Origin: Saccharibacillus endophyticus | GTDB taxonomy: Bacteria > Bacillota > Bacilli > Paenibacillales > Paenibacillaceae | Assembly (NCBI RefSeq): GCF_013185185.1 | Contig: NZ_JAAZWE010000004.1 | Span: 590,232-654,231 of the forward strand | Reading direction: 5' to 3' | Length of the DNA: 64,000 nucleotides | Shown here: piece after piece, positions 4,209 to 15,569 of the stretch | Layout: each line of letters starts with the position of its first letter | Position numbering within the stretch: the first letter of the stretch is position 1 | Program-made: the position numbers and the translations under genes | Notes under the pieces: model-generated | Databases searched by the model: none | What the model saw: only the letters and a program-made list of their open reading frames with translations | What the model was told of the DNA's origin: nothing

Positions 4209-4356
4209 GTCAGGCAAAAAGATTTCGGCGTGCTGCTTTCGACGATGCCGGGCGACTCTCCTCCCTCGCGTGCCGGCCGCAACGAACTGGGCACGGCCCC
4301 GCGCAAGATGTACAATCGGAAGACAACGAAATCGGATTTCGAAGGAGGCCTATGCA

Positions 4357-4749
4357 TTGGAAACGGTAAAAGTGTACAATACCGCAGTCGAAGCAACGCT
4401 CGAAGTGATCGGAGGCAAATGGAAACCGATCATCCTGTTCGTGCTGACGTTCGGCAAAAAGCGTAACGGCGAGCTGATGAAGCTGCTGCCTTCCGCGATT
4501 ACCCAAAAGGTGCTGACCCAACAGCTCAAAGAATTGGAGCGCGACGGAATCGTCCGCCGGATCGCCCATTCCACCGTGCCGCCGAAAGTCGAATACGAAC
4601 TGACGGATTACGGATGGAGCCTTAAAGAGATCCTGCACGCGCTTTGCCGCTGGGGCGAAAATCACGTCGAGCAAATCTACGGCAAACGCGCCGAGATCGC
4701 TTCTCCCGGCTCTTTTCTCGCGGCATCTTCCGCATTCAAGCCGGAATGA
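4357..4749 (+). CDS. HxlR-family transcriptional regulator lacking the redox cysteine
   Basis: This is a 130-aa winged-helix regulator with EVIGGKWKPIILFVL, LTQQLKELERDGIVRR and the wing PPKVEYELTDYG. The cysteine usually found just before this core (CPV...VIGGKW) is replaced: the sequence reads YNTAVEATLEVIGGKW. A thiol switch at that position is therefore absent, and the only cysteine is late in the protein. A TTG start at 4357 with GGAGG 8 bp upstream was chosen. Its 3' end overlaps the 3' end of the convergent reductase gene by 14 bp. Its target is not obvious from the sequence. Confidence 0.82.
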   Translation: METVKVYNTAVEATLEVIGGKWKPIILFVLTFGKKRNGELMKLLPSAITQKVLTQQLKELERDGIVRRIAHSTVPPKVEYELTDYGWSLKEILHALCRWGENHVEQIYGKRAEIASPGSFLAASSAFKPE

Positions 4750-5800
4750 TGCCGCGCTGACGAAAATCGTCGAAGATGCCGAAAAACATCGCTTCGGTAT
4801 CGACGAATTCGTGGAACCCGAATCGCCGCGCCTTGCTGCCGTCGGCGAAAAAATCGTAATCCCAACCGAAAACGAAATCGCCGAAGCCCCACGACGATAC
4901 GTCCGCGTACGAAAAGGGAGCCAGCCCGTAACGCTCGACCATATCGTTCCACAGAGGTTCTTTATCCCGCATGGTCTCGCCGAGCGGCATCGGAAGCGGG
5001 TCGGCCGCCTCGAGTCCGAAATAAGCGGCGATCTTCGGCCACAACTCGCTCCAGCGGAACAAATCGCCGTTCGCGATATTAAAAGCCTGATTCGCGCAGC
5101 TCGGCTCGGTCGCCGCCCATACGGTCGCTTTCGCCAACAGCCCCGCATCCGTCATCTCAAGCAGGCTTCGGTACGCGCCGGGTTTGCCGGGAAAGCGAAG
5201 CGGAATGCCGAGTTCTTTGGAAAACGAGGCATAAACGGCGATCACCGCCGCCAAGTTCATCGGATTGCCCAAACCGAAGCCGCAAACGACCGACGGACGC
5301 AGCGCGGACCACGTCCACCCGCTCTTCTTCGCCCTTCGCTCCAAAAATTGCTGCTGTTCGATATTGAATTCGGGCGGCATATGGCGGTCGTCGCTTTCTT
5401 TGGCCGGCGTTTTGAACGGACCGAGATGCGCGCCGTACACCTTGTAGCCCTGCATCAGGCTGATGTGCCGCAGGCGGCGGGCAGCAGGCTCGACGGCATC
5501 GACCGCGTTGACCAGCATCGCCAGATTCGGCTGCACCAGTTCGGCCCAAGTCGGACGGTCTTGATAAGCGGCGTAAAACAGATGCGTCACTTCGCTCAAG
5601 CCGCTCAGCGCTTCCTTGGAAGCGTCGGCGTCCAGCAGATCGACCGGGATATACCGTACGTTCTTCGAAGATTCGCCTCCCCGCCGGGATACGCCGATGA
5701 CGTTCCAGTCCGGCAGTTTTGCCAAATGCTCGATCAGATTCCCTCCGATCACTCCGTTCGCGCCGATCACCAACGCCGTTTTAGTTTCGTTTGCGTTCAT
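4736..5800 (-). CDS. PRISE-like NAD(P)-dependent SDR reductase
   Basis: This 354-aa Rossmann protein of the atypical/extended SDR class looks like the progesterone 5-beta-reductase/iridoid synthase-like (PRISE) group. It has an N-terminal IGANGVIGGNLIEHL nucleotide motif, SRRGG after strand 2, DLLDAD, LMQGYKVYGAHLGP in place of the catalytic loop, and ALRPSVVCGFG. PRISE enzymes reduce enones. The bacterial substrate is unknown. The ATG at 5800 follows AGGAGCAGGAAC and is preferred over an upstream in-frame start at 5830. It is convergent with and overlaps the HxlR gene, and may be that regulator's target through an antisense arrangement, though nothing proves this. Confidence 0.8.
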   Translation of the reverse strand: MNANETKTALVIGANGVIGGNLIEHLAKLPDWNVIGVSRRGGESSKNVRYIPVDLLDADASKEALSGLSEVTHLFYAAYQDRPTWAELVQPNLAMLVNAVDAVEPAARRLRHISLMQGYKVYGAHLGPFKTPAKESDDRHMPPEFNIEQQQFLERRAKKSGWTWSALRPSVVCGFGLGNPMNLAAVIAVYASFSKELGIPLRFPGKPGAYRSLLEMTDAGLLAKATVWAATEPSCANQAFNIANGDLFRWSELWPKIAAYFGLEAADPLPMPLGETMRDKEPLWNDMVERYGLAPFSYADVSSWGFGDFVFGWDYDFFADGSKARRFGFHEFVDTEAMFFGIFDDFRQRGIIPA

Positions 5801-5990
5801 GTTCCTGCTCCTGCTCCTCCCGCGATGCACAAGTAGCCGGTCTTATCTCGGCTCTTGCTCTATTCTGGCGAGACGAAGCGGAACTGAACAGTACGCACTT
5901 CGAAGTTCCATAAGCACTTTAAAGTCACAAATGGACAGCCGCAGGGCTGCCCGTCGCTTGGAATCTTTATGATTTTTGCATCAATCGAAT

Positions 5991-6686
5991 CTACTTCGCC
6001 GCTTCCGGATGGAATCCGCGATTATCCGCGTATCCCTCAATACTCCACACGCCCAGCTTTTCTTGTTTGGCCTTGTCTTGAATCTTCCGGAACTCGTCGA
6101 TATATTTGTCGTTCGGTTGATATACCACGACGCGTGCCAAGCCCTGTTCCAGCAGCTGCTCGTTGACCATGTCGCCGTCGAGATAGACGTAAGCCAGCAT
6201 TCGGTCGTACTGGTCGCGCTGCTCTTCGTCGAACTCCAGCTCAACCTGTTTCCCGCCCAGCAGCTTTTTCGTATACTCGCTCGCTTCCGGGCCGAACGGC
6301 TGTACCGGGGTTCCTTCCTTTTTCGTTTCCGGCGTATCCAGCAGCAGCATGCGCACCCGCTCGCGGCTGCCGTCCTCAAGAATCGCGATAAACGTATCTC
6401 CGTCGACGGTGCGCTCTACGGCAGCCGAGACGCGTCCGTCAACCGAAGCAGCGTCTTCCGAAGTCTTGTCGCCACCTGCCGCGCTTCCTTGCGTATCCGT
6501 TTGCCGACTGCTCTCCGTTGGCGTGGTTTCGTCCTGATCGAGCAGATTTCCCAACATCTCCCGACCCGGCCCCGTAAAAAGAAGCAGTCCTAATACAACA
6601 ACGGTCGCGATGATCGAGAGCACACTTCGCTTCGGCCCTCCGCCGGGATTTCCATTTTGCGGATTGCGCTGTTCTGGTGATGTCAT
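5991..6686 (-). CDS. Membrane-anchored thermonuclease-like (SNase) protein
   Basis: This 231-aa protein has a short cytoplasmic N-terminus, a transmembrane anchor at residues 21-38 (VLSIIATVVVLGLLLF), a low-complexity Thr/Ser/Gly linker and a C-terminal staphylococcal-nuclease OB-fold. Catalytic residues are visible: VDGDTF, RVRMLLLDTPETK (Arg35 and Glu43 equivalents) and QYDRMLAYVYLDG (Arg87 equivalent). It is predicted to degrade DNA or RNA outside the membrane in a calcium-dependent way. The ATG has GGAGG 7 bp upstream. A weak GC hairpin follows the stop (about 5935-5955). Confidence 0.9.
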   Translation of the reverse strand: MTSPEQRNPQNGNPGGGPKRSVLSIIATVVVLGLLLFTGPGREMLGNLLDQDETTPTESSRQTDTQGSAAGGDKTSEDAASVDGRVSAAVERTVDGDTFIAILEDGSRERVRMLLLDTPETKKEGTPVQPFGPEASEYTKKLLGGKQVELEFDEEQRDQYDRMLAYVYLDGDMVNEQLLEQGLARVVVYQPNDKYIDEFRKIQDKAKQEKLGVWSIEGYADNRGFHPEAAK

Positions 6687-7794: not shown

Positions 7795-8616
7795 TTATAA
7801 CTGCTTCGCAAATTCATTTAACTTCAGCGCCATTTCGCGAATTTCTTCGATCATCGAAGACAACTGCTCCGTCGACTGCGCCTGATCTTGTCCGGTGTCG
7901 GCGATACGCTCGATCGAACCGCTCATTTGGGCCGTCAGCTTTTTGAACGTGCCCAATGTCTCGCGGATGCTGTTCGTCGATGTCACGGTCTGACCGGACA
8001 GTTTGCGAATTTCCGAAGCCACGATACCGAAGCCCGCGCCTTTTTCGCCCGCATGCGCCGCTTCGATCGCCGCATTGATCCCGAGCATATGCGTCTGATC
8101 CGCCACTTCCTTGATCATCCGCACGACGCCGTCCGCGCCGTAGGCATTTTGCTCGGCTTGCTTGGACAGCTCCAGCAGTTCGCCCGACGCGTCGGCCAAG
8201 CCGCCCGAACCTTCCGCGATATGCGTGATCCGTTCATTGGCGTTCGACAGCGCGCTCGCGATCCGGTCCGCGATTTCGATCAACTCGCTATGCCTACGTA
8301 CCTGCACCGCAATGCCGCCAATAACACGACCGCTGGCATCTTTCACGGGCGTTGCCGTTCCGGTAAAAGCAAATCCGTAAAATTCCGCAGGAACTTCGGC
8401 GCGCAGCGGTTCGTCGTTGCGGATGGCCATAAGCAGAGGTTCGCCTTCTTGCAGACGCTGTCCGGTTTTGATTTTCAAATCGATATGGTTGCCCGGCCAA
8501 TAAGCGGTGAATTGCTCCATATCACATAGCGCAATCGAAATGTCCACCGGGAGCGCGGTTTTGAGCAAGGGGATGACCGCTGCCAGCGTATCGAGAGAGT
8601 CGATTCCTTTTGTCAT
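7795..8616 (-). CDS. Soluble methyl-accepting chemotaxis protein (YfmS-like)
   Basis: This 273-aa chemoreceptor has no transmembrane helix and no HAMP domain. Residues 1-115 form a PAS-like input domain ([20 protein letters not shown], then a [12 protein letters not shown]-like end of the sheet). Residues 120-273 form a short MCP signalling coiled coil with the hairpin tip [20 protein letters not shown]. It should signal to CheA/CheW from the cytoplasm in response to an unknown small molecule, possibly redox or energy state. The ATG at 8616 has GGAGG 8 bp upstream; the reading frame extends further but without a ribosome site. Confidence 0.9.
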
Positions 8617-8768
8617 GATCTGTTCCTCCAGGGGGTCTTTTTGGTCATTGTCTGTTATATCGGTCAGGCGGCAAGGACGACTAAGCAAGACAGTCAGAGG
8701 ACGAAAAAGCCGAGTAGGCGCGTCAAGCAAGAAGATCAGGTTCGAATTTCCCGATACGTCGAAAAAAT

Positions 8769-10463
8769 TTATTCGTAAGCACCCAGACTGGGCTTGCCGT
8801 CGGCGGACTTTCCGCGAGGCTTGCCGTCAAGGTCCGGCGCAGCGGATAAGATCTTGTCGGGCATGCCGGATACGGAAGCCGGAGAGCCGGATTTTAGGCG
8901 ATAATCGCTTTTTGCATCAACGAATTCGGGATCGGCGAAGATGGAGTCGGCGTCATTCCCGCTGCCTTTGCGATAAGCGGAAAAGCCTTTGTATTCTTTG
9001 CCTTTCCAAGTCCAGACCGCCTCGTTTTTGTCAGGAGCAAAATATAGGTTACCGTCGACTTGGTTGCGCGTGTTCTCGGCGTATTCGTTATGGATCAGCA
9101 CATTAGAGCCGGAAACCGAAAAAATATTATTGCGGATCGCGTTATCACGGGTGTCGAATTGGATGTACAGCTGTCCGGTTCCCCACTCCAGCGTATCGTT
9201 ATAGGCTACCGTATTCCCGGTGATCGTGCTGCCTGTCGTGGAACCGCGCTCGTCGTCATAGCCGCCCATCGCGATTCCGGTCAGGGCATTGCGAACGACC
9301 AGATTGCTGCGGACGATGATTCCGGAGGTCGAACGACCGCTATGCTCGGATGCGATTTCGATGCCGATATCGTTGCTTTCGCTTATATTGCGTTCGACGA
9401 CGATGTCCCGTCCTCCGTCGATATAAATGCCGCCGGCGGAATAGCTGCCGTTCGGAATTTTCCGGCCGTAAGACGGATTGCGGGAAGACGTGCTTCCGGT
9501 GATCCGATTGCCCCGGATCACGCCGTCGCGGGCCTGATCGTATTTCGCATTTGGCGAAGTGCCTTCGAAGCCGATCGCGTCGATCCCGATATTGTCGTTG
9601 TCATGGACGTCATTGTTCTCCACGACGAATTTCTCGACGTTGCCGTTCAAAACCAAAGCTTCGCTCGATCCGAGGATCAAGTTGTACACTTCATTGCCCG
9701 AGACGGTCAGATCGGAGATCGAAGCCGGGGCTTCGGTGCCGTAAACGGCAATGCCGTGGGCATCCCGGCCTGCAAGATCGCTGCCTTTCGGCGAAGAAGT
9801 ATTGCCGATATCATGAACTTTGTTGTCCAGGATGCGGATATCCGATCCGGCGCCGTGGACATAGATGCCGATCGGCACGCTGCCGGAGGTTGCGGTCTTG
9901 TAGTTGCGCAGTTCCAGGCCGCGGACGGTGACGCGGCTGGCGTCATGCAGCTCGATCAGGCTGCCGGTGTCTTGCACGGACAGGCCCTTGCCGTCGAGCA
10001 CCGCCGTCTCCGACGGATAGCTCGCGACGGTCAGGCGCGCCGCGGAGCCGGCGGCGCCCGGGGTTCCGGCCAGCTTCAATTGCTGGCTGTAGACGCCGCC
10101 GCGCAGGTAGACGGTGCCGCCGGTCTTCATGGCGGCATCGGCTGCGCGCTGCACGGTCTTCCACGGGCTGCTTTCGGAGCCCGTGCCCGTGGTGTCGCTG
10201 CCGCTCGGAGCGACGTAGTAGTAGGGCTTGGCGTCCGCCTGCGCGGCGGCGGGGGACGACTTGCCCGCGTTCGAGGCAGGAGAAGCCGGAGAAGCTGACA
10301 ATACCGCCGATGTTGAGGTAGATACAGAGAATGACGGCAGTTCAACGTTATTTTCTGCTCTTGAAGCTTCATTTGCTTGTGTCGGCGAAGTACAGGCAGA
10401 TAATGATGCAGTAACTACAATTATGCTTGTGGCCATATAGAGAGGTTTCAAGATGTTAAACAA
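8769..10463 (-). CDS. Secreted parallel beta-helix lipoprotein (DUF1565/polysaccharide lyase-like)
   Basis: This 564-aa protein has a lipoprotein signal (lipobox LSAC at about residues 20-23), a Ser/Ala/Pro-rich linker to about 75, then a right-handed parallel beta-helix. [14 protein letters not shown] and [13 protein letters not shown] are the usual opening of DUF1565/PL9-like helices, and repeated VRGN/VENN/IRNN turns run to the end. Such proteins bind or cleave acidic plant polysaccharides; no catalytic residues can be assigned with certainty. The TTG start at 10463 lies 1 bp after the helicase stop, and its GGGAG ribosome site is inside the helicase's last codons, so translation is coupled. 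The first about 150 bp are AT-rich like the helicase; the rest is GC-rich. Confidence 0.82.
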
Positions 10464-10464
10464 G

Positions 10465-13266
10465 TTATGTTTCTCCCTTCTTCATTTCATATGTTCCAAA
10501 AGCTCGGTTCAATACTTCTCGAATTGAAGCTTCATCGCAAATCTCATTTGTTTTATATCTTTTTAACGTCAACCCATAATGTTCAAAAATGTGATCCTTC
10601 ATTTTATCTTTTAAAAGTTGAGATGGGTTATTATCATGACTTGCAAATCCATCGACTTCAATAGCCAGTAACGGTTTTTTGTCCAGTTTATGATAAATAA
10701 CGAAATCAACTGAAGCCCGGTTCTTGATGTATCGTTGTTCGTCTTTTGTTAACTTCTCTGTATTCTGAAACAAATTTTTCAAATAAATCTGCTCTGTGTA
10801 CTCCATTATGTGATACTGATCTTCTACAAGAATTTCTGACAATAAAGTATTCATAATTTTTTCCGTTTTATAACGGGACTTCCCATGGACTCTGGATTCA
10901 AGTGAATTTAATTTATCTGAGTAATCCTTATACAGCAGGTCAAACACAGAAACAATTTCACTTTCTACAATATGTTCATCCATTGTGTTGTATTCCATAT
11001 ACCGGATTAAATCGCCAACTTCACTCCGCTTTTCTAAAAACATCGAATGTCCGGTAACTAAAATGAATTTATTCTGTGCACGTGACACAGCAACATTCAG
11101 CATTCGTGGATCATTAACAAACTTCAATCCCATGTTACCCTGCCTTGTCTTATCAATGACTGTTGACATAATCATTGTGCCTTTTTCACGACCTTGATAT
11201 TTGTGTACTGTATCACACTCAATTTCTTCATCAAATTGTTCGGTTGCATGATCAGCTTGTTTTCGGTAAGGTGTAACAAAACCAAGATCGGTATTCTTGC
11301 GCACAGCATGATCCAAATCAACAAGGACTTCCTTTTCAATCACATCAAGTTCTCTGCGATTAAATTTGCCCAAATCTTCGCCTTTAGTAACTTCCCTCAT
11401 ATGATTTCCTCGTACAGTTCGATAAATAAGCAACGGAACATCTTCTTTACTTTCAGTAAAAGCAATTAACTCTCCTGAATAATATTTTACATTGCAAAAT
11501 TCAATAATGCGGGGATGACACCTGTAATGTTCTCTGAGCATCGTTTTCGGAACAGACTCCGCATAAATTTCAAGTACCGAAGTTAACAAGCTATGATCAA
11601 AATATCGAAAAGCCGGATTAACTTTCTCTCCTATTTCAGCAAACTTTTGCTCAAGTTTACGGTCTACGATTTGCGGCAATTGTCGAGTATCTCCTACAAT
11701 GATTGCTCTCTTACAACAAGATAACGCAAGCGCTCCTTCGAGCAAATTAACTTGTGAAGACTCATCAATAATGACGTAATCAAAAAGAAAATTAGGGCTA
11801 GTACAACTCAAAAGCGATTGCGCTGTACTAAGTACTATAGGATATGTTTTAACAAAACGGTTTAAATTCTGCTTATATTTTTTTAGTTCTTCCTTGACTC
11901 GCTCATGTTTCTCGTATTTTTTCATTATAAGAATTTTAAAGATTTTCTCAGATATTTTTTGATGTTCATTAGTTAGATTTTCAAAATTCCCCGCTTTCAA
12001 CCGTTGGCTAATCTCTGTGATTTTCCTGTCTAATTCTTCGATTTTCAATTTGTAAAAAGCGAGTTGATACTCCAAAAGAATATCCATTTCATTTTGTTTA
12101 AGCTTTTTGAAGTTAGTAAAACCATGAAACAGCACCAATTTTACTTTCCTTATCCAGCTGTCGGACTTTTGCCCATTGCTGGATATTTTGCTTTCCACCA
12201 AAAATTTTAAAGCCGTCTCGGAAGTTTGCTGATAAAAAGAGAGCTTGCCGATCTGTTCAATATCCTGTTTTTCAAAATAATTTTGAAAGTGCTTATACTC
12301 CAGTCGATAAGCTTCAACTTTCTGCTTAAGAAGTGTACATTCATTTTCCAATCCCATCAGTTGACGAATTTGAACCGAAATTTCGAGAAGTTGCTTATTT
12401 AAGTAATTGATATCCTCCTGCTCAGCTAGTTCTTGATAAGCATCAAGTGAAACATTTGGTAACGCATCAAAAAATCTCTTTTGATTTTTAAGATTTCCTA
12501 AAGAAGCAACAAGAAAGCCGTATCCAGCAGCTTCTAACTTTTCTTTTACATTTTGCACAGCAGCGTTATTGCTGGAAACAACTGCAACACTTTTATTATT
12601 GATGACTAAGTTAGCCAAAATATTAAGAATCGTTTGTGTTTTCCCTGTTCCTGGAGGGCCTTCAATTACAGAAATAGAACTTTTCAAGGCTTGACGCACC
12701 GCTTCATATTGGCTCAAATTAAATCGAAATGGAAAAATAGATTCGTATTCTTCGGTAGAACGTGAAGAAACCTTACTTTGTGATAAATAAGTGAATAAAG
12801 GACTATCTTGATTAATAGAATTTAAATGACGCATTTGTTTTCTTAAAAAAGATTGCTCTTCATCGTGGCTATCGGGAAGACGTAGTTCTTCCGCAATGGT
12901 TTGCCAATAACGAACTGTATGTTCGATCGAATTTGTGGAAGCCTCTTTCTTTTTTATCTCAAGTCCCTTAGCAACATGTACTTGTCGGCTATTGTCTTCA
13001 AAAACAAGTCGAACATGGCTTTGGAAGTCCATCACTCTTTTCACGCCTATTGTCCGCATATTCTGTATGTAGACAGTCTGATTTTCTTCGATTTCAATCA
13101 TGCTAGGAGATTCCAGCATTATGGCTCTATCCAAAGGATAATTAAACGGTTTTTGAGTGTTTTTTTTGTAAGTAATCCGCAAGTTTTTGCCTATAGGTTC
13201 ACAAGACAAAATTTCAATAGTCTTATCTTGACCGTCTACAATTACTAAATACTTTTCTTCTTCCAT
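10465..13266 (-). CDS. UPF1-like SF1 helicase with C-terminal DUF2726-like nuclease domain
   Basis: This 933-aa AAA/SF1 helicase is of the DNA2/NAM7 (UPF1-like) type. An N-terminal beta-rich domain (1-100) is followed by Walker A EGPPGTGKTQTILNIL near 203, a long coiled-coil insertion (about 280-470), Walker B VIIDESSQVNLLEGALAL near 500, GDTRQLPQI, and the C-terminal RecA motifs HKYQGREKG and VAVSRAQNKFILVTGH near 730. Residues about 790-930 contain LLAIEVDGFASH and KRYKTNE, matching a PDDEXK-like DUF2726 endonuclease. The gene is strikingly AT-rich against its neighbours, which suggests transfer. A helicase-nuclease fusion in an acquired segment fits phage or plasmid defence, but this is inference; a housekeeping repair role cannot be excluded. 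It overlaps the ribosome site of the next gene. Confidence 0.85.
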   Translation of the reverse strand: MEEEKYLVIVDGQDKTIEILSCEPIGKNLRITYKKNTQKPFNYPLDRAIMLESPSMIEIEENQTVYIQNMRTIGVKRVMDFQSHVRLVFEDNSRQVHVAKGLEIKKKEASTNSIEHTVRYWQTIAEELRLPDSHDEEQSFLRKQMRHLNSINQDSPLFTYLSQSKVSSRSTEEYESIFPFRFNLSQYEAVRQALKSSISVIEGPPGTGKTQTILNILANLVINNKSVAVVSSNNAAVQNVKEKLEAAGYGFLVASLGNLKNQKRFFDALPNVSLDAYQELAEQEDINYLNKQLLEISVQIRQLMGLENECTLLKQKVEAYRLEYKHFQNYFEKQDIEQIGKLSFYQQTSETALKFLVESKISSNGQKSDSWIRKVKLVLFHGFTNFKKLKQNEMDILLEYQLAFYKLKIEELDRKITEISQRLKAGNFENLTNEHQKISEKIFKILIMKKYEKHERVKEELKKYKQNLNRFVKTYPIVLSTAQSLLSCTSPNFLFDYVIIDESSQVNLLEGALALSCCKRAIIVGDTRQLPQIVDRKLEQKFAEIGEKVNPAFRYFDHSLLTSVLEIYAESVPKTMLREHYRCHPRIIEFCNVKYYSGELIAFTESKEDVPLLIYRTVRGNHMREVTKGEDLGKFNRRELDVIEKEVLVDLDHAVRKNTDLGFVTPYRKQADHATEQFDEEIECDTVHKYQGREKGTMIMSTVIDKTRQGNMGLKFVNDPRMLNVAVSRAQNKFILVTGHSMFLEKRSEVGDLIRYMEYNTMDEHIVESEIVSVFDLLYKDYSDKLNSLESRVHGKSRYKTEKIMNTLLSEILVEDQYHIMEYTEQIYLKNLFQNTEKLTKDEQRYIKNRASVDFVIYHKLDKKPLLAIEVDGFASHDNNPSQLLKDKMKDHIFEHYGLTLKRYKTNEICDEASIREVLNRAFGTYEMKKGET

Positions 13267-13400
13267 AAAACATTCCTTTCTTCAAATGACAATTTTCATC
13301 AGAATGTAATGTCATAAAAATGATAACTGTTATTCAATAAGTTAGGGAATGGTTTTTTGTTTTAAATTGGATATTTAATCGACAAAACATTTTCTGAAAA

Positions 13401-13437
13401 GAAAAAAGATCAGTCTCTCAAGAGAAACTGATCTTTG
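13401..13437 (-). terminator. Intrinsic terminator after the malic enzyme remnant
   Basis: On the minus strand AAAGATCAGT...ACTGATCTTTTTTC forms a hairpin with a T-run. It separates the malic enzyme reading frame from the helicase gene. Confidence 0.85.
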
Positions 13438-13474
13438 CAGCGACTTAGGAAAGCAGATTCTAAATAGTGAGTGC

Positions 13475-15013
13475 TTAAATCAAAGCTCCCTCGCGCGCAT
13501 CCAATCGAATCGGCTTATACGTACAATCCCACATCGCGTCGCGTACCGCCGCGCGGACGTCTTCCGGATAGAAGCGCGCCGCGCCGTCTTCCATTGCCGC
13601 TTCCGCGACCGCGATCGCGACTTCTTGCGAAACGCGGCGCAGATCGCGGACTCCCGGCAGCAATGCTGCTCCGGGACGCGATAAGTCGGCCAAGCCGGCA
13701 ACAGCATCTGCTGCTGCCGCAAACATCCGCTCCGTGATCCGTGCCGAGCGGGTCACGATCGCCCCCAATTCCAGGCCCGGGAATACCAACGCGTTATTGG
13801 ATTGGCCGATCTCGACCATGACTCCGTTATGGACCACAGGCTCGAACGGACTTCCCGTCGCGATCAGCGCGCGTCCTTCCGTCCAGTTCAGCAGATCCGC
13901 CGGAACGGCTTCCGCAAGCTGCGTCGGGTTGGACATCGGCATGATGACCGGACGCTCTACATGGCTCGCCATCTCCCGTACGATCTCCTCGGTAAACGCT
14001 CCGGCAACGCCGGACGTACCGATCAGGATCGTCGGTTTGACGCGTCGGACCACTTCAAGCAGCGGAATGCGGCCGACGGCCGATTCCCCGGCTGCGCTCG
14101 ATTCGCCAACGCCGATATCGACGCTGGCCGTGCCGCTTTCTTTTTCCTTTTTCCCAACACCTTCTCGTTCCCAGTCCGCGCATTCCGCCGTTGTTCGCAA
14201 ATAAGGCCGCTGGAACTCTAACACGCCTTCCGTTTCTTCGGTCAACAATCCCCGGTAATCGTACGCCCAAAAGCGGCCGCGCGCCTCCTGCTCGCTCAAT
14301 CCCGCTAGCTCCATCGCCGATCCGCATTGCCGATACCTGCCGCGCACCCGTTCATGTCGGCAGCCCATATACAGCGGATCGGCCAGCAGCTCGCCGTTGT
14401 TCGTTCCGGCATCCAGCACGACCGCCAGCACCCGGCTCGGGTCGATTCCGGCCGCAGCCGTATATACGGCAAGCTTTCCGATCGCGATATTGATCCCGCC
14501 GACGCCCCAGTCCCCGATACCGAGAATGCTTTCCGAGTCGGTCGCGACGATCAGGTCGATGTCTCCCGGCTCTAAGCCGAGATTGCGGAACGCCTGCTCA
14601 ATTCCGCCGATATTATCGATAGACAGATAAATCCCGCCCGGCTTATGGTACGCGCGGCTGTATTCCTGAATCGCGCGTCCGACCGTCGGCGTGTACACGA
14701 TCGGCAGCATCTCGCTCGGATGCTCGGTCAACAGTCGGTAAAAAAGAACTGTATTCCGGTGCATCAAATCGCTGAGCGCGATATTTTTATGTAAATCGTC
14801 AGGCTGCTTCAAAAACTGTTCGTATACCCGCTGCACCTGTTCCTCGATGGTCAATACGCCCGGCGGCAGCAAGCCCTCCAATCCGAGCTCTTTGCGTTCC
14901 TCCGGCGTAAACGCCACGCCTTTGTTCAGCATCGGCTCGGCCAATAAGGCTCTGCCGCATAATCCCGTCTCGATCTCTCCGTCTACCATTCTATTATGAA
15001 TCCCGTGCAGCAA
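13475..15013 (-). pseudogene. NAD-malic enzyme with catalytic core deleted
   Basis: The reading frame encodes 512 aa of a MaeA/SfcA-type malic enzyme (oxidative decarboxylation of malate to pyruvate). Kept are YTPTVG (catalytic Tyr), [20 protein letters not shown] (catalytic Lys), [14 protein letters not shown], and the C-terminal IGTSG, MSNPT and SNNALVFPG blocks. Between [11 protein letters not shown] and [12 protein letters not shown] (near 14320-14340) roughly 85-90 residues of the family are missing in frame. The lost part includes the metal-binding EDF and FNDDIQGT motifs and the NAD-binding GAGxAG. There is no ribosome site at the TTG (15013) or ATG (14989) starts, and a terminator lies about 20-50 bp upstream. 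It is therefore probably inactive, although the frame is open. A sequencing or assembly deletion is the alternative. Confidence 0.75.
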
Positions 15014-15030
15014 CCAATGAAACGTATAGG

Positions 15031-15066
15031 AAAACTAACAAAGCGACTACCTAAGAGGTAGCCGCT
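15031..15066 (-). terminator. Intrinsic terminator
   Basis: On the minus strand GCGGCTACCT-CTT-AGGTAGTCGC is followed by TTTGTTAGTTTT. It lies directly upstream of the malic enzyme remnant and ends transcription from the 15.1-15.5 kb fragment. Confidence 0.8.
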
Positions 15067-15099
15067 TATGCTTATTATCTTAATAACTAAGTAGCTTTT

Positions 15100-15429
15100 T
15101 TACTTGAAGTAAGATGTTGGAAGAATAACTTCGGCTTTTGCACGGTTCAAATTTTCATAGTAAGACTCAACTCTTATTTTTTTAACTCCTGCTACATTAG
15201 TATCAAAAGATTGAACCCTATCATTACTCGAAACCCGATATGAATTTAATTGCTCGTCAGTATCATCGTTGAAAACAGTAAAGGTTGAAACCCTCGTCTC
15301 TTCATCCAAAACTGCAACTTCAAGATGAAGTGTTCGGTACCCCTTATCCGGATTAAAATACAGTTGAGCATAACCTGCGTATTTATCCGTCCTAACTAAT
15401 ACTTCTTTAAAATCTTGACTTCCGATCAT
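15100..15429 (-). pseudogene. NPCBM-like domain remnant, 5'-truncated
   Basis: This is an AT-rich reading frame of 109 aa from an ATG that has no ribosome site. Coding-like sequence continues upstream in frame (about 20 more codons) to a stop at 15499-15501 without any start codon. This suggests the C-terminal part of a longer protein. The pattern LHLEVAVLDEETRVSTFTVF ... NSYRVSSNDRVQSFD ... VAGVKKIRVESYYE resembles the second half of NPCBM-type carbohydrate-binding domains. It lies between two terminators, so it may not be transcribed. The base composition differs sharply from the flanking genes. The domain call is tentative. Confidence 0.5.
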
Positions 15430-15511
15430 TGTATACTCGGATTGCTTAGAATTATGAAAATCGTCATATTCTGGTTTTACCTTTTGAACTATGAATATTT
15501 AAATTTAAAAA

Positions 15512-15554
15512 CAAAAAAAGCAAACGGATGCCATCAAAACAGCACCTGTTTGCT
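15512..15554 (-). terminator. Intrinsic terminator of the 164-aa gene
   Basis: On the minus strand AGCAAACAGGTGC...GGCATCCGTTTGCT is followed by seven T-rich bases. Confidence 0.8.
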
Positions 15555-15569
15555 CTCATCATTTATATA

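What the first reader, a model, noticed from the sequence alone, without database searches (positions are those of the whole stretch)
10465..13266. AT-rich helicase-nuclease gene in a foreign segment, possible defence gene
A 933-aa UPF1-like SF1 helicase with a coiled-coil insertion and a C-terminal DUF2726-like PDDEXK domain has base composition very different from its surroundings. It lies beside a broken malic enzyme and a truncated AT-rich fragment. Single-gene helicase-nuclease fusions are a recurring form of phage defence, but this architecture is not one I can assign to a named system.
Basis: partly seen in the sequence, partly recalled or inferred. Interest (0 to 1): 0.55.

Follow-up and report, generated by a model that had tools for sequence, protein, structure and literature searches.

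The report
Solitary mobile helicase-nuclease, probable phage defence
A single foreign gene in this bacterium encodes an enzyme that probably runs along DNA or RNA and cuts it with an attached restriction-type nuclease; relatives are scattered over many bacterial groups, some of them right beside known anti-virus genes, so it is probably an anti-virus gene, though I found no test of it.

Summary
Confirmed: window 10465-13266(-) is an intact 933-aa UPF1/IGHMBP2-like SF1 helicase with a helical insertion after Walker A and a C-terminal DUF2726 nuclease. GC is 35.1% against 54.8%, -8.7 SD. The closest relative lacks it in an otherwise collinear region, as do all 15 other genus genomes held. The nuclease folds like Vsr and I-Bth0305I (Z 8.2-9.5); its five acid/His residues are all kept in 99 of 103 relatives. 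Relatives are patchy: 32 of 394 family genomes, 643 of 5426 E. coli genomes, at least six phyla. In 8 of 106 loci a McrB and/or McrC (DUF2357) type restriction gene lies within 6 kb, more than chance under a simple model. It is not Mokosh. The closest described architecture is the CnuH helicase-Vsr fusion of Type III-B CoCoNuTs (PMC11090510), but the window gene has no McrBC partner and another N-terminus. Best reading: a stand-alone CnuH-like helicase-nuclease acting in defence. Activity, substrate and trigger are inferred.

The parts
10465..13266 (-). helicase-nuclease gene, 933 aa
12949..13266 (-). N-terminal all-beta module, aa 1-106, fold not identified
   Evidence: AlphaFold2 model; barely covered by the structure search
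12637..12660 (-). Walker A GPPGTGKT, aa 203-210
   Evidence: G206, G208, K209, T210 present in 101 of 103, gap in 2
11911..12411 (-). helical (coiled-coil-like) insertion, aa 286-452
   Evidence: model
11752..11766 (-). Walker B / motif II DESSQ, aa 501-505
   Evidence: E502 in 103 of 103, D501 in 102 of 103
11053..11598 (-). second RecA-like domain (AAA_12), aa 557-738
   Evidence: core aligns with IGHMBP2, UPF1 and Dna2
10510..10869 (-). Vsr-like / DUF2726 nuclease domain, aa 800-919
10606..10707 (-). nuclease active-site stretch, D854...E870-V-D872-G...H877...D887
   Evidence: invariant in 55 of 55; all five kept in 99 of 103
10299..10464 (-). AT-rich first 55 codons of the downstream gene (8769-10463) and its junction; left end of the foreign tract
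13267..13480 (.). AT-rich spacer upstream of the gene, with a hairpin and T-run visible on the minus strand after the malic enzyme; single match in the genome; right end of the foreign tract
13475..15013 (-). neighbouring malic enzyme with 89 codons missing (context, not part of the enzyme)

Best explanation
A horizontally acquired, single-gene defence enzyme: a stand-alone relative of the CnuH helicase-Vsr fusions. Proposed mechanism: the UPF1/IGHMBP2-like motor loads on single-stranded nucleic acid of an invader (replicating, recombining or transcribed DNA, or RNA), moves along it with ATP, and the tethered Vsr-type nuclease cuts the track, destroying the invader or killing the cell. The N-terminal beta module and the helical insertion are the likely places for recognition and for holding the nuclease off until triggered. 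Shown by sequence or model: helicase and nuclease folds, conserved active sites in both, foreign origin, patchy and usually solitary occurrence, association of some relatives with McrBC-type restriction genes. Inferred: polarity (5' to 3', general knowledge of the UPF1 group), substrate (DNA somewhat more likely than RNA; the odds here cover both), trigger, and the defence role itself.
For: Helicase core: IGHMBP2 4b3f Z 24.6, rmsd 2.5 A over 436 residues; UPF1 and Dna2 rows Z about 22-24. Nuclease model: 3hrl Z 9.5, I-Bth0305I Z 9.2, BstEII Z 8.5, Vsr Z 8.2; the best PDB sequence hit is also I-Bth0305I, but weak (E 0.17). DUF2726 is called an REase-fold DNase, fused to an AbiJ N-terminal domain, in PMC3710099 (passages). 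Residue constraint: 99 of 103 keep all five nuclease residues. Patchy: 32 of 394 family genomes, 15 of 398 phylum genomes, 643 of 5426 E. coli. Empty site in the closest relative. Gene GC lower than its flanks in 91 of 98 loci, the window the most extreme. Decay: 5 of 32 family copies broken, 1 cut by a contig end. McrBC association: McrB-like genes by PDB match in L055, L058, L078; DUF2357, the McrC N-terminal domain (PMC11090510, passages), next to them and in L126 and L131; a DUF2357-like piece in L181; EVE/AAA_5 and McrC genes directly before the helicase in L148; an McrBC pair in L179. DUF2357 is in 151 of 384 family genomes; 13 of the 31 other helicase carriers show it and 3 have it within 6 kb, where a simple model expects 0.04 (P 8e-6). 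Other restriction neighbours: Type I HsdR two genes away in L108, Type III Res in L176, HsdS/HsdM and GmrSD in L154, Type ISP in L056, N-6 methylase and TIR protein on a Parabacteroides plasmid.
Against: No defence assay exists here. The window gene's two neighbours are not defence genes, and the other window genes were not scanned. In 98 of 106 loci no McrB/McrC-type gene was found with the profiles used (several loci are short). L078, L126 and L131 belong to one clade, so the 8 loci are not 8 independent events. The PADLOC tallies do not separate near from far or random genes (105, 44, 42 models at 1e-20, each inflated by many models hitting the same proteins), and non-defence families recur near the gene too (HAMP 4, Acyl-CoA dehydrogenase 3). 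The 20 neighbours annotated one by one were hand-picked. The Vsr-like fold also includes RNA-associated proteins (FASTKD4, mitoribosome chains), so the DNA target is open.
Confidence: 0.67

Rival explanations
1. An accessory DNA or RNA repair/processing enzyme (like Dna2 or IGHMBP2) that helps the host with replication or damage and merely moves between genomes.
For: The core is about as close to Dna2, a replication nuclease-helicase, as to UPF1 (Z 22-24), and Vsr is a repair nuclease. Many near neighbours are ordinary metabolic or signalling genes.
Against: Presence in under a tenth of the family, broken copies (5 of 32), AT-richness and McrBC/restriction neighbours are not typical of repair genes.
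Confidence: 0.16
2. A selfish or mobile-element gene: the nuclease spreads its own reading frame, or the gene belongs to a mobile element's replication module.
For: A nuclease close to the homing endonuclease I-Bth0305I; mostly solitary gene; an empty site exists; integrase-type genes within three genes in several loci (cluster of 7 of 106 loci); E. coli copies lie among IS elements and degraded genes.
Against: No single insertion site recurs across the family, although some related genomes share flanks, and no common flanking motif was seen by eye in 26 loci. In the window the foreign tract replaces about 550 bases and 55 codons of a neighbour, unlike precise homing. Helicase and nuclease residues are equally conserved.
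Confidence: 0.1
3. Sub-case of the best explanation: an RNA-targeting immune effector. The UPF1-like motor tracks on RNA and the nuclease degrades invader or host transcripts, as proposed for CoCoNuTs.
For: Top structural hits of the helicase are RNA helicases; PMC11090510 predicts RNA targeting for CoCoNuTs and notes that their nucleases, including the Vsr-like one of Type III-B, can degrade RNA; RNA-associated proteins share the nuclease fold.
Against: The solved catalytic relatives (Vsr, BstEII, I-Bth0305I, TnsA) cut DNA (general knowledge). No known RNase domain such as HEPN was found.
Confidence: 0.25

Closest known systems
CnuH of Type III-B CoCoNuTs (PMC11090510; passages and section 9 part 1 read)
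   Same: UPF1-like SF1 helicase, large helical insertion after Walker A, Vsr-like nuclease fused directly to the helicase; some relatives of the window gene lie beside McrB/McrC-type genes
   Different: The window gene has no McrB/McrC neighbour; its genome has no PF10117 match and one DUF2357 gene on another contig with no McrB-like gene beside it. N-terminus modelled as all-beta, not the wHTH described. Most relatives are without such partners nearby
Mokosh (MkoA/MkoC)
   Same: UPF1-like helicase core; MkoA is the best PADLOC hit, 199 bits over aa 91-762. Type II joins helicase and nuclease in one protein (recalled)
   Different: DUF2726/Vsr-like instead of the PLD-like domain given for Mokosh in PMC10952713 (passages); no kinase or NERD found; MkoA matches in the family reach 807 bits over nearly the whole profile, and this family's profile gives those loci only 24-61 bits
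DUF2726 (PF10881)
   Same: C-terminal domain is a member, 42.4 bits
   Different: No function in Pfam; of 5 papers holding the word the one looked into for function calls it an REase-fold DNase fused to AbiJ-NTD3
Dna2
   Same: UPF1-group helicase joined to a restriction-fold nuclease (core match)
   Different: Dna2's nuclease lies at the other end and is of RecB type (recalled)
Hachiman (HamAB; abstract in listings)
   Same: A sensor helicase restrains an effector nuclease; model for the proposed logic
   Different: Two proteins; its helicase is of superfamily 2 (recalled)

Membership tests
CoCoNuT Type III-B (CnuH) | UPF1-like SF1 helicase core | tested here: met
CoCoNuT Type III-B (CnuH) | large helical insertion after Walker A | tested here: met
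   helices between aa 286 and 452
CoCoNuT Type III-B (CnuH) | Vsr-like nuclease fused to the helicase | tested here: met
   Vsr Z 8.2, I-Bth0305I Z 9.2
CoCoNuT Type III-B (CnuH) | N-terminal wHTH fused to the helicase | tested here: not met
   model of aa 1-106 has strands and no helix of 4 or more residues; the module was not folded or searched alone
CoCoNuT Type III-B (CnuH) | McrB/CnuB and McrC/CnuC genes with the helicase | tested here: not met
   not met for the window gene: neighbours are other genes, no PF10117 in the genome, the one DUF2357 gene is on contig 11. Met in up to 8 of 106 relatives' loci
Mokosh | match to the whole MkoA profile | tested here: not met
   only positions 526-1102 of 1112 at 199 bits, against 7-1109 at 807 bits and 42-1107 at 615 bits in two family genomes
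Mokosh | PLD-like nuclease | tested here: not met
   no PLD family in Pfam up to E 0.1
DUF2726 (PF10881) | profile match above the curated cut-off | tested here: met
   42.4 bits, cut-off 24.7
Vsr / EDxHD-like nuclease fold | restriction-endonuclease fold of the Vsr branch | tested here: met
   Z 8.2-9.5; model pLDDT 84
Vsr / EDxHD-like nuclease fold | conserved acidic and His active-site residues | tested here: met
   all five kept in 99 of 103; the residue-by-residue match to EDxHD is my reading, with only a weak alignment behind it
Vsr / EDxHD-like nuclease fold | nuclease activity on DNA | not testable with these tools
   needs purified protein
Anti-phage defence gene | enrichment beside defence genes | tested here: met
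   for McrBC-type genes: 3 of 13 other carriers in the family within 6 kb, 0.04 expected, P 8e-6; general tallies weak or undecided
Anti-phage defence gene | protects against phage | not testable with these tools
   needs plaque assays

The most novel reading that the evidence does not exclude
A widespread, undescribed single-protein immune system: CnuH-like UPF1 helicase-Vsr fusions that can work apart from the McrBC (CoCoNuT) machinery, with the helicase itself as sensor and the nuclease as effector, spread over at least six phyla and present in 12% of complete E. coli genomes.
Probability: 0.4. Interest if true: 0.65.

Novelty: new variant of a known kind. Interest (0 to 1): 0.5.

Why it matters
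If it is immune, one gene would suffice to sense and cut, a compact model for how UPF1-like helicases (shared with eukaryotic RNA surveillance) serve in bacterial defence. It would also show that the helicase-nuclease part of McrBC-linked systems can act without the GTPase. The E. coli branch makes a direct test in laboratory strains easy.

Tried and rejected
Housekeeping gene: rejected, absent from all 15 other genus genomes held. Mokosh membership: rejected. CoCoNuT membership: rejected for the window gene, kept as nearest architecture. NCBIfam: no family reaches its cut-off; ProA, PLuB and Hhe match the helicase part below theirs. PF10117 (McrBC) is found in 8 of 26 other carrier genomes that I chose by hand; this misses DUF2357-type McrC (for instance L131's genome), so it does not count genomes without McrC.

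No operon partner recurs in most loci: the widest neighbour cluster is in 7 of 106. On that account the odds of the best explanation went from 0.60 to 0.67, the repair rival from 0.20 to 0.16, and interest from 0.48 to 0.50. The first DUF2357-type gene tried had no PDB sequence match. Shared flanking motif: none seen by eye in 26 loci. Donor of the AT-rich start of the downstream gene: no good match in 11 genus loci. The first genome-contig scan with the single protein found nothing. PHROGs: three matches, the best of unknown function.

Literature: DUF2726 is held in 5 papers. The listings showed no paper naming this architecture other than the CoCoNuT paper; most listed papers were not opened. 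DefensePredictor (PMC13092281, passages) validated 42 E. coli systems, 13 of 31 in one group with PD-(D/E)XK domains; 'DUF2726' and 'helicase' do not occur in its main text as held, and supplements could not be read, so the E. coli relative may already have been tested. No structure search was made for aa 1-106 alone (both folding jobs used).

Rows dropped: six loci (L106, L107, L109, L113, L127, L135) as duplicates in neighbour counts; ORFs under 600 aa; loci with under 5 kb of flank (98 of 106 kept). Near sample 126 of 292 eligible proteins, far 145 of 336, random 135 of 279. The random control is Paenibacillaceae-type genomes only, while the near set spans phyla. In one search the list of 25 was cut among 2-member families, so 2-member restriction families could be hidden there. 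One search covered 384 genomes, one search covered 394; the carriers with DUF2357 are those seen in the list. The chance model assumes random placement and an average of 1.2 copies, and its second figure (8 of 106 loci, P 8e-9) assumes one system in every genome and independent loci, which is not so; I do not lean on that figure.
Full report
Observation. The 933-aa ORF at 10465-13266(-) is intact and single-copy in its genome. Pfam finds AAA_11, AAA_12 and DUF2726 above their cut-offs. Base composition is extreme: GC 0.351, 8.7 SD below the rest of the window, and the largest deficit against flanks among 98 loci measured.

How it got there. The closest relative held (G386, locus L051) is about 92% identical and collinear on both sides, but has 554 unaligned bases (8441-8994) between the two neighbour genes where the window has the helicase. 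The foreign tract also takes in the first 55 codons of the downstream gene, which suggests recombination with an AT-richer donor rather than a precise insertion (inference). No donor was found in 11 genus loci. The neighbouring malic enzyme lacks 89 codons compared with L051, and the sequence just upstream of it (14985-15568) differs as well, so this place has seen several events.

Anatomy. The AlphaFold2 model from 55 sequences has mean pLDDT 89.3. The core aligns with IGHMBP2 at Z 24.6 (2.5 A over 436 residues) and with UPF1 and Dna2 at about Z 22-24. Between Walker A and motif II lies a helical insertion (aa 286-452). The first 106 residues form an all-beta module that was barely tested in the structure search. 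The C-terminal domain, folded alone (pLDDT 84), aligns with a Neisseria endonuclease-like protein (Z 9.5), I-Bth0305I (9.2), a mitoribosomal protein (8.6), BstEII (8.5) and Vsr (8.2). D854, E870, D872, H877 and D887 are invariant in the 55 aligned sequences and all present in 99 of 103 proteins of 600 aa or more, the window included; two of the other four have gaps there and two differ at D872. The pattern resembles the EDxHD class of homing endonucleases described in PMC3943268 (passages); the assignment residue by residue is my reading.

Distribution. 32 of 394 genomes of the bacterial family, this one included, match at E 1e-40 or better; none of 15 other genus members does. In the phylum sample it is 15 of 398 at 1e-60, this one included. 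A pattern scan of genome contigs kept the best 80 of 458 relatives, by their titles from Bacillota, Actinomycetota, Bacteroidota, Pseudomonadota, Campylobacterota, Bacteriovoracaceae and Melainabacteria. A relative is in 643 of 5426 complete E. coli genomes, there only on chromosomes, though two E. coli plasmid records also carry it among seven plasmid records in all. The tree groups partly by phylum, with some cross-phylum neighbours such as a Pedobacter bin beside a Bacillus bin; both are metagenome bins, so mis-binning is possible, and its 'Cyanobacteriota' label for a Rhodococcus is probably a name clash. Of the 32 family copies, 26 are full length, 5 broken and 1 cut by a contig end.

Context. 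Most copies have no recurring partner. The exception is McrBC-type restriction. McrB-like genes, by match to solved McrB, lie upstream in L055, L058 and L078, each followed by a gene with DUF2357, the N-terminal domain of McrC (PMC11090510, passages). L131 has helicase, McrB-like and DUF2357 genes in a row on one strand, L126 a weaker pair, L181 a DUF2357-like piece at a contig end. L148 has an EVE/AAA_5 gene and McrC directly before the helicase, and L179 an McrBC pair 3.3-5.5 kb away. That is 8 of 106 loci, three of them (L078, L126, L131) in one clade of the helicase tree. DUF2357 is in 151 of 384 family genomes. Of 31 other helicase carriers 13 show it, and 3 have it within 6 kb, against 0.04 expected under random placement (P 8e-6). 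Other restriction neighbours: HsdR two genes away (L108), Type III Res (L176), Type ISP (L056), and L154, where the helicase ORF runs in frame from an HsdS, with HsdM, another HsdS and an integrase before it and GmrSD after it; these were picked by hand. A Parabacteroides plasmid has an N-6 methylase, SNF2 protein and TIR protein before it. In sampled tallies Mrr_cat, HNH, integrase (3 each) and N6_Mtase, DNA_methylase, ResIII (2 each) recur among 126 near neighbours, not among 135 random proteins and not at 3 or more among 145 far ones; HAMP and acyl-CoA dehydrogenase recur near as well, and the PADLOC tallies do not separate the sets.

Comparison with known systems. PADLOC's best hit is MkoA at 199 bits over positions 526-1102 of the profile; four MkoA matches among 148 family genomes score 331-807 bits, and this family's profile gives those loci 24-61 bits. 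No PLD nuclease or kinase is present. The best architectural match is CnuH of Type III-B CoCoNuTs: a UPF1-like helicase with a large helical insertion after Walker A and a Vsr-like nuclease fused to it (PMC11090510). The window protein lacks a wHTH in its model and has no McrB/McrC neighbour; its genome has no PF10117 match and one DUF2357 gene on another contig, with no McrB-like gene found beside it. So it works like, and may derive from, a CnuH, but the window gene is not part of a CoCoNuT.

Verdict. Most likely a stand-alone helicase-nuclease used in defence against phages or other invaders (0.67; raised from 0.60 in the draft because of the McrBC association). A repair role and selfish mobility remain possible, and DNA or RNA as target is open. 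It is a new variant of a known kind. The defence role is unproven, and the E. coli relative may already have been tested in work I could not read in full.

Noticed in passing
window 13475-15013: Malic enzyme lacks 89 codons in its middle relative to the closest relative; two deletions together keep the frame, and the matching pieces overlap by 7 bases at the larger one. Assembly error is not excluded.
   Followed up: partly
window 14985-15568: AT-rich stretch with a 109-aa ORF (weak NPCBM match) stands where the relative has about 1160 other bases, directly upstream of the malic enzyme.
   Followed up: partly
window 4210-5996: About 1.8 kb, including a 364-aa ORF at 4736-5830(-), is absent from the closest relative, where 30 bases stand instead.
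   Followed up: no
L154:8738-12709: In Colidextribacter sp. OB.20 the helicase ORF is in frame with an upstream HsdS, inside a Type I restriction locus with an integrase and a downstream GmrSD gene.
   Followed up: partly
L148:5313-12556: In a Bacteriovoracaceae bin an EVE/AAA_5 gene, McrC and the helicase-nuclease follow one another on one strand, with 4 bases between McrC and the helicase ORF.
   Followed up: partly
L131:9992-17184: In Halobacillus the helicase-nuclease, an McrB-like gene and a DUF2357 gene stand in a row on one strand, 263 bases between the first two.
   Followed up: partly
L255:7435-9315 (G000 contig 11): The window genome has a DUF2357 (McrC-type) gene without an McrB-like gene in the 16 kb read; all 15 other genus genomes have a DUF2357 match too.
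   Followed up: partly
L083, L195, L196, L197: The E. coli relative lies among IS elements, degraded genes and, in some, PAPS reductase/IbrB-like genes; several O157:H7 rows list a second hypothetical gene under the match, as if the ORF were split.
   Followed up: partly
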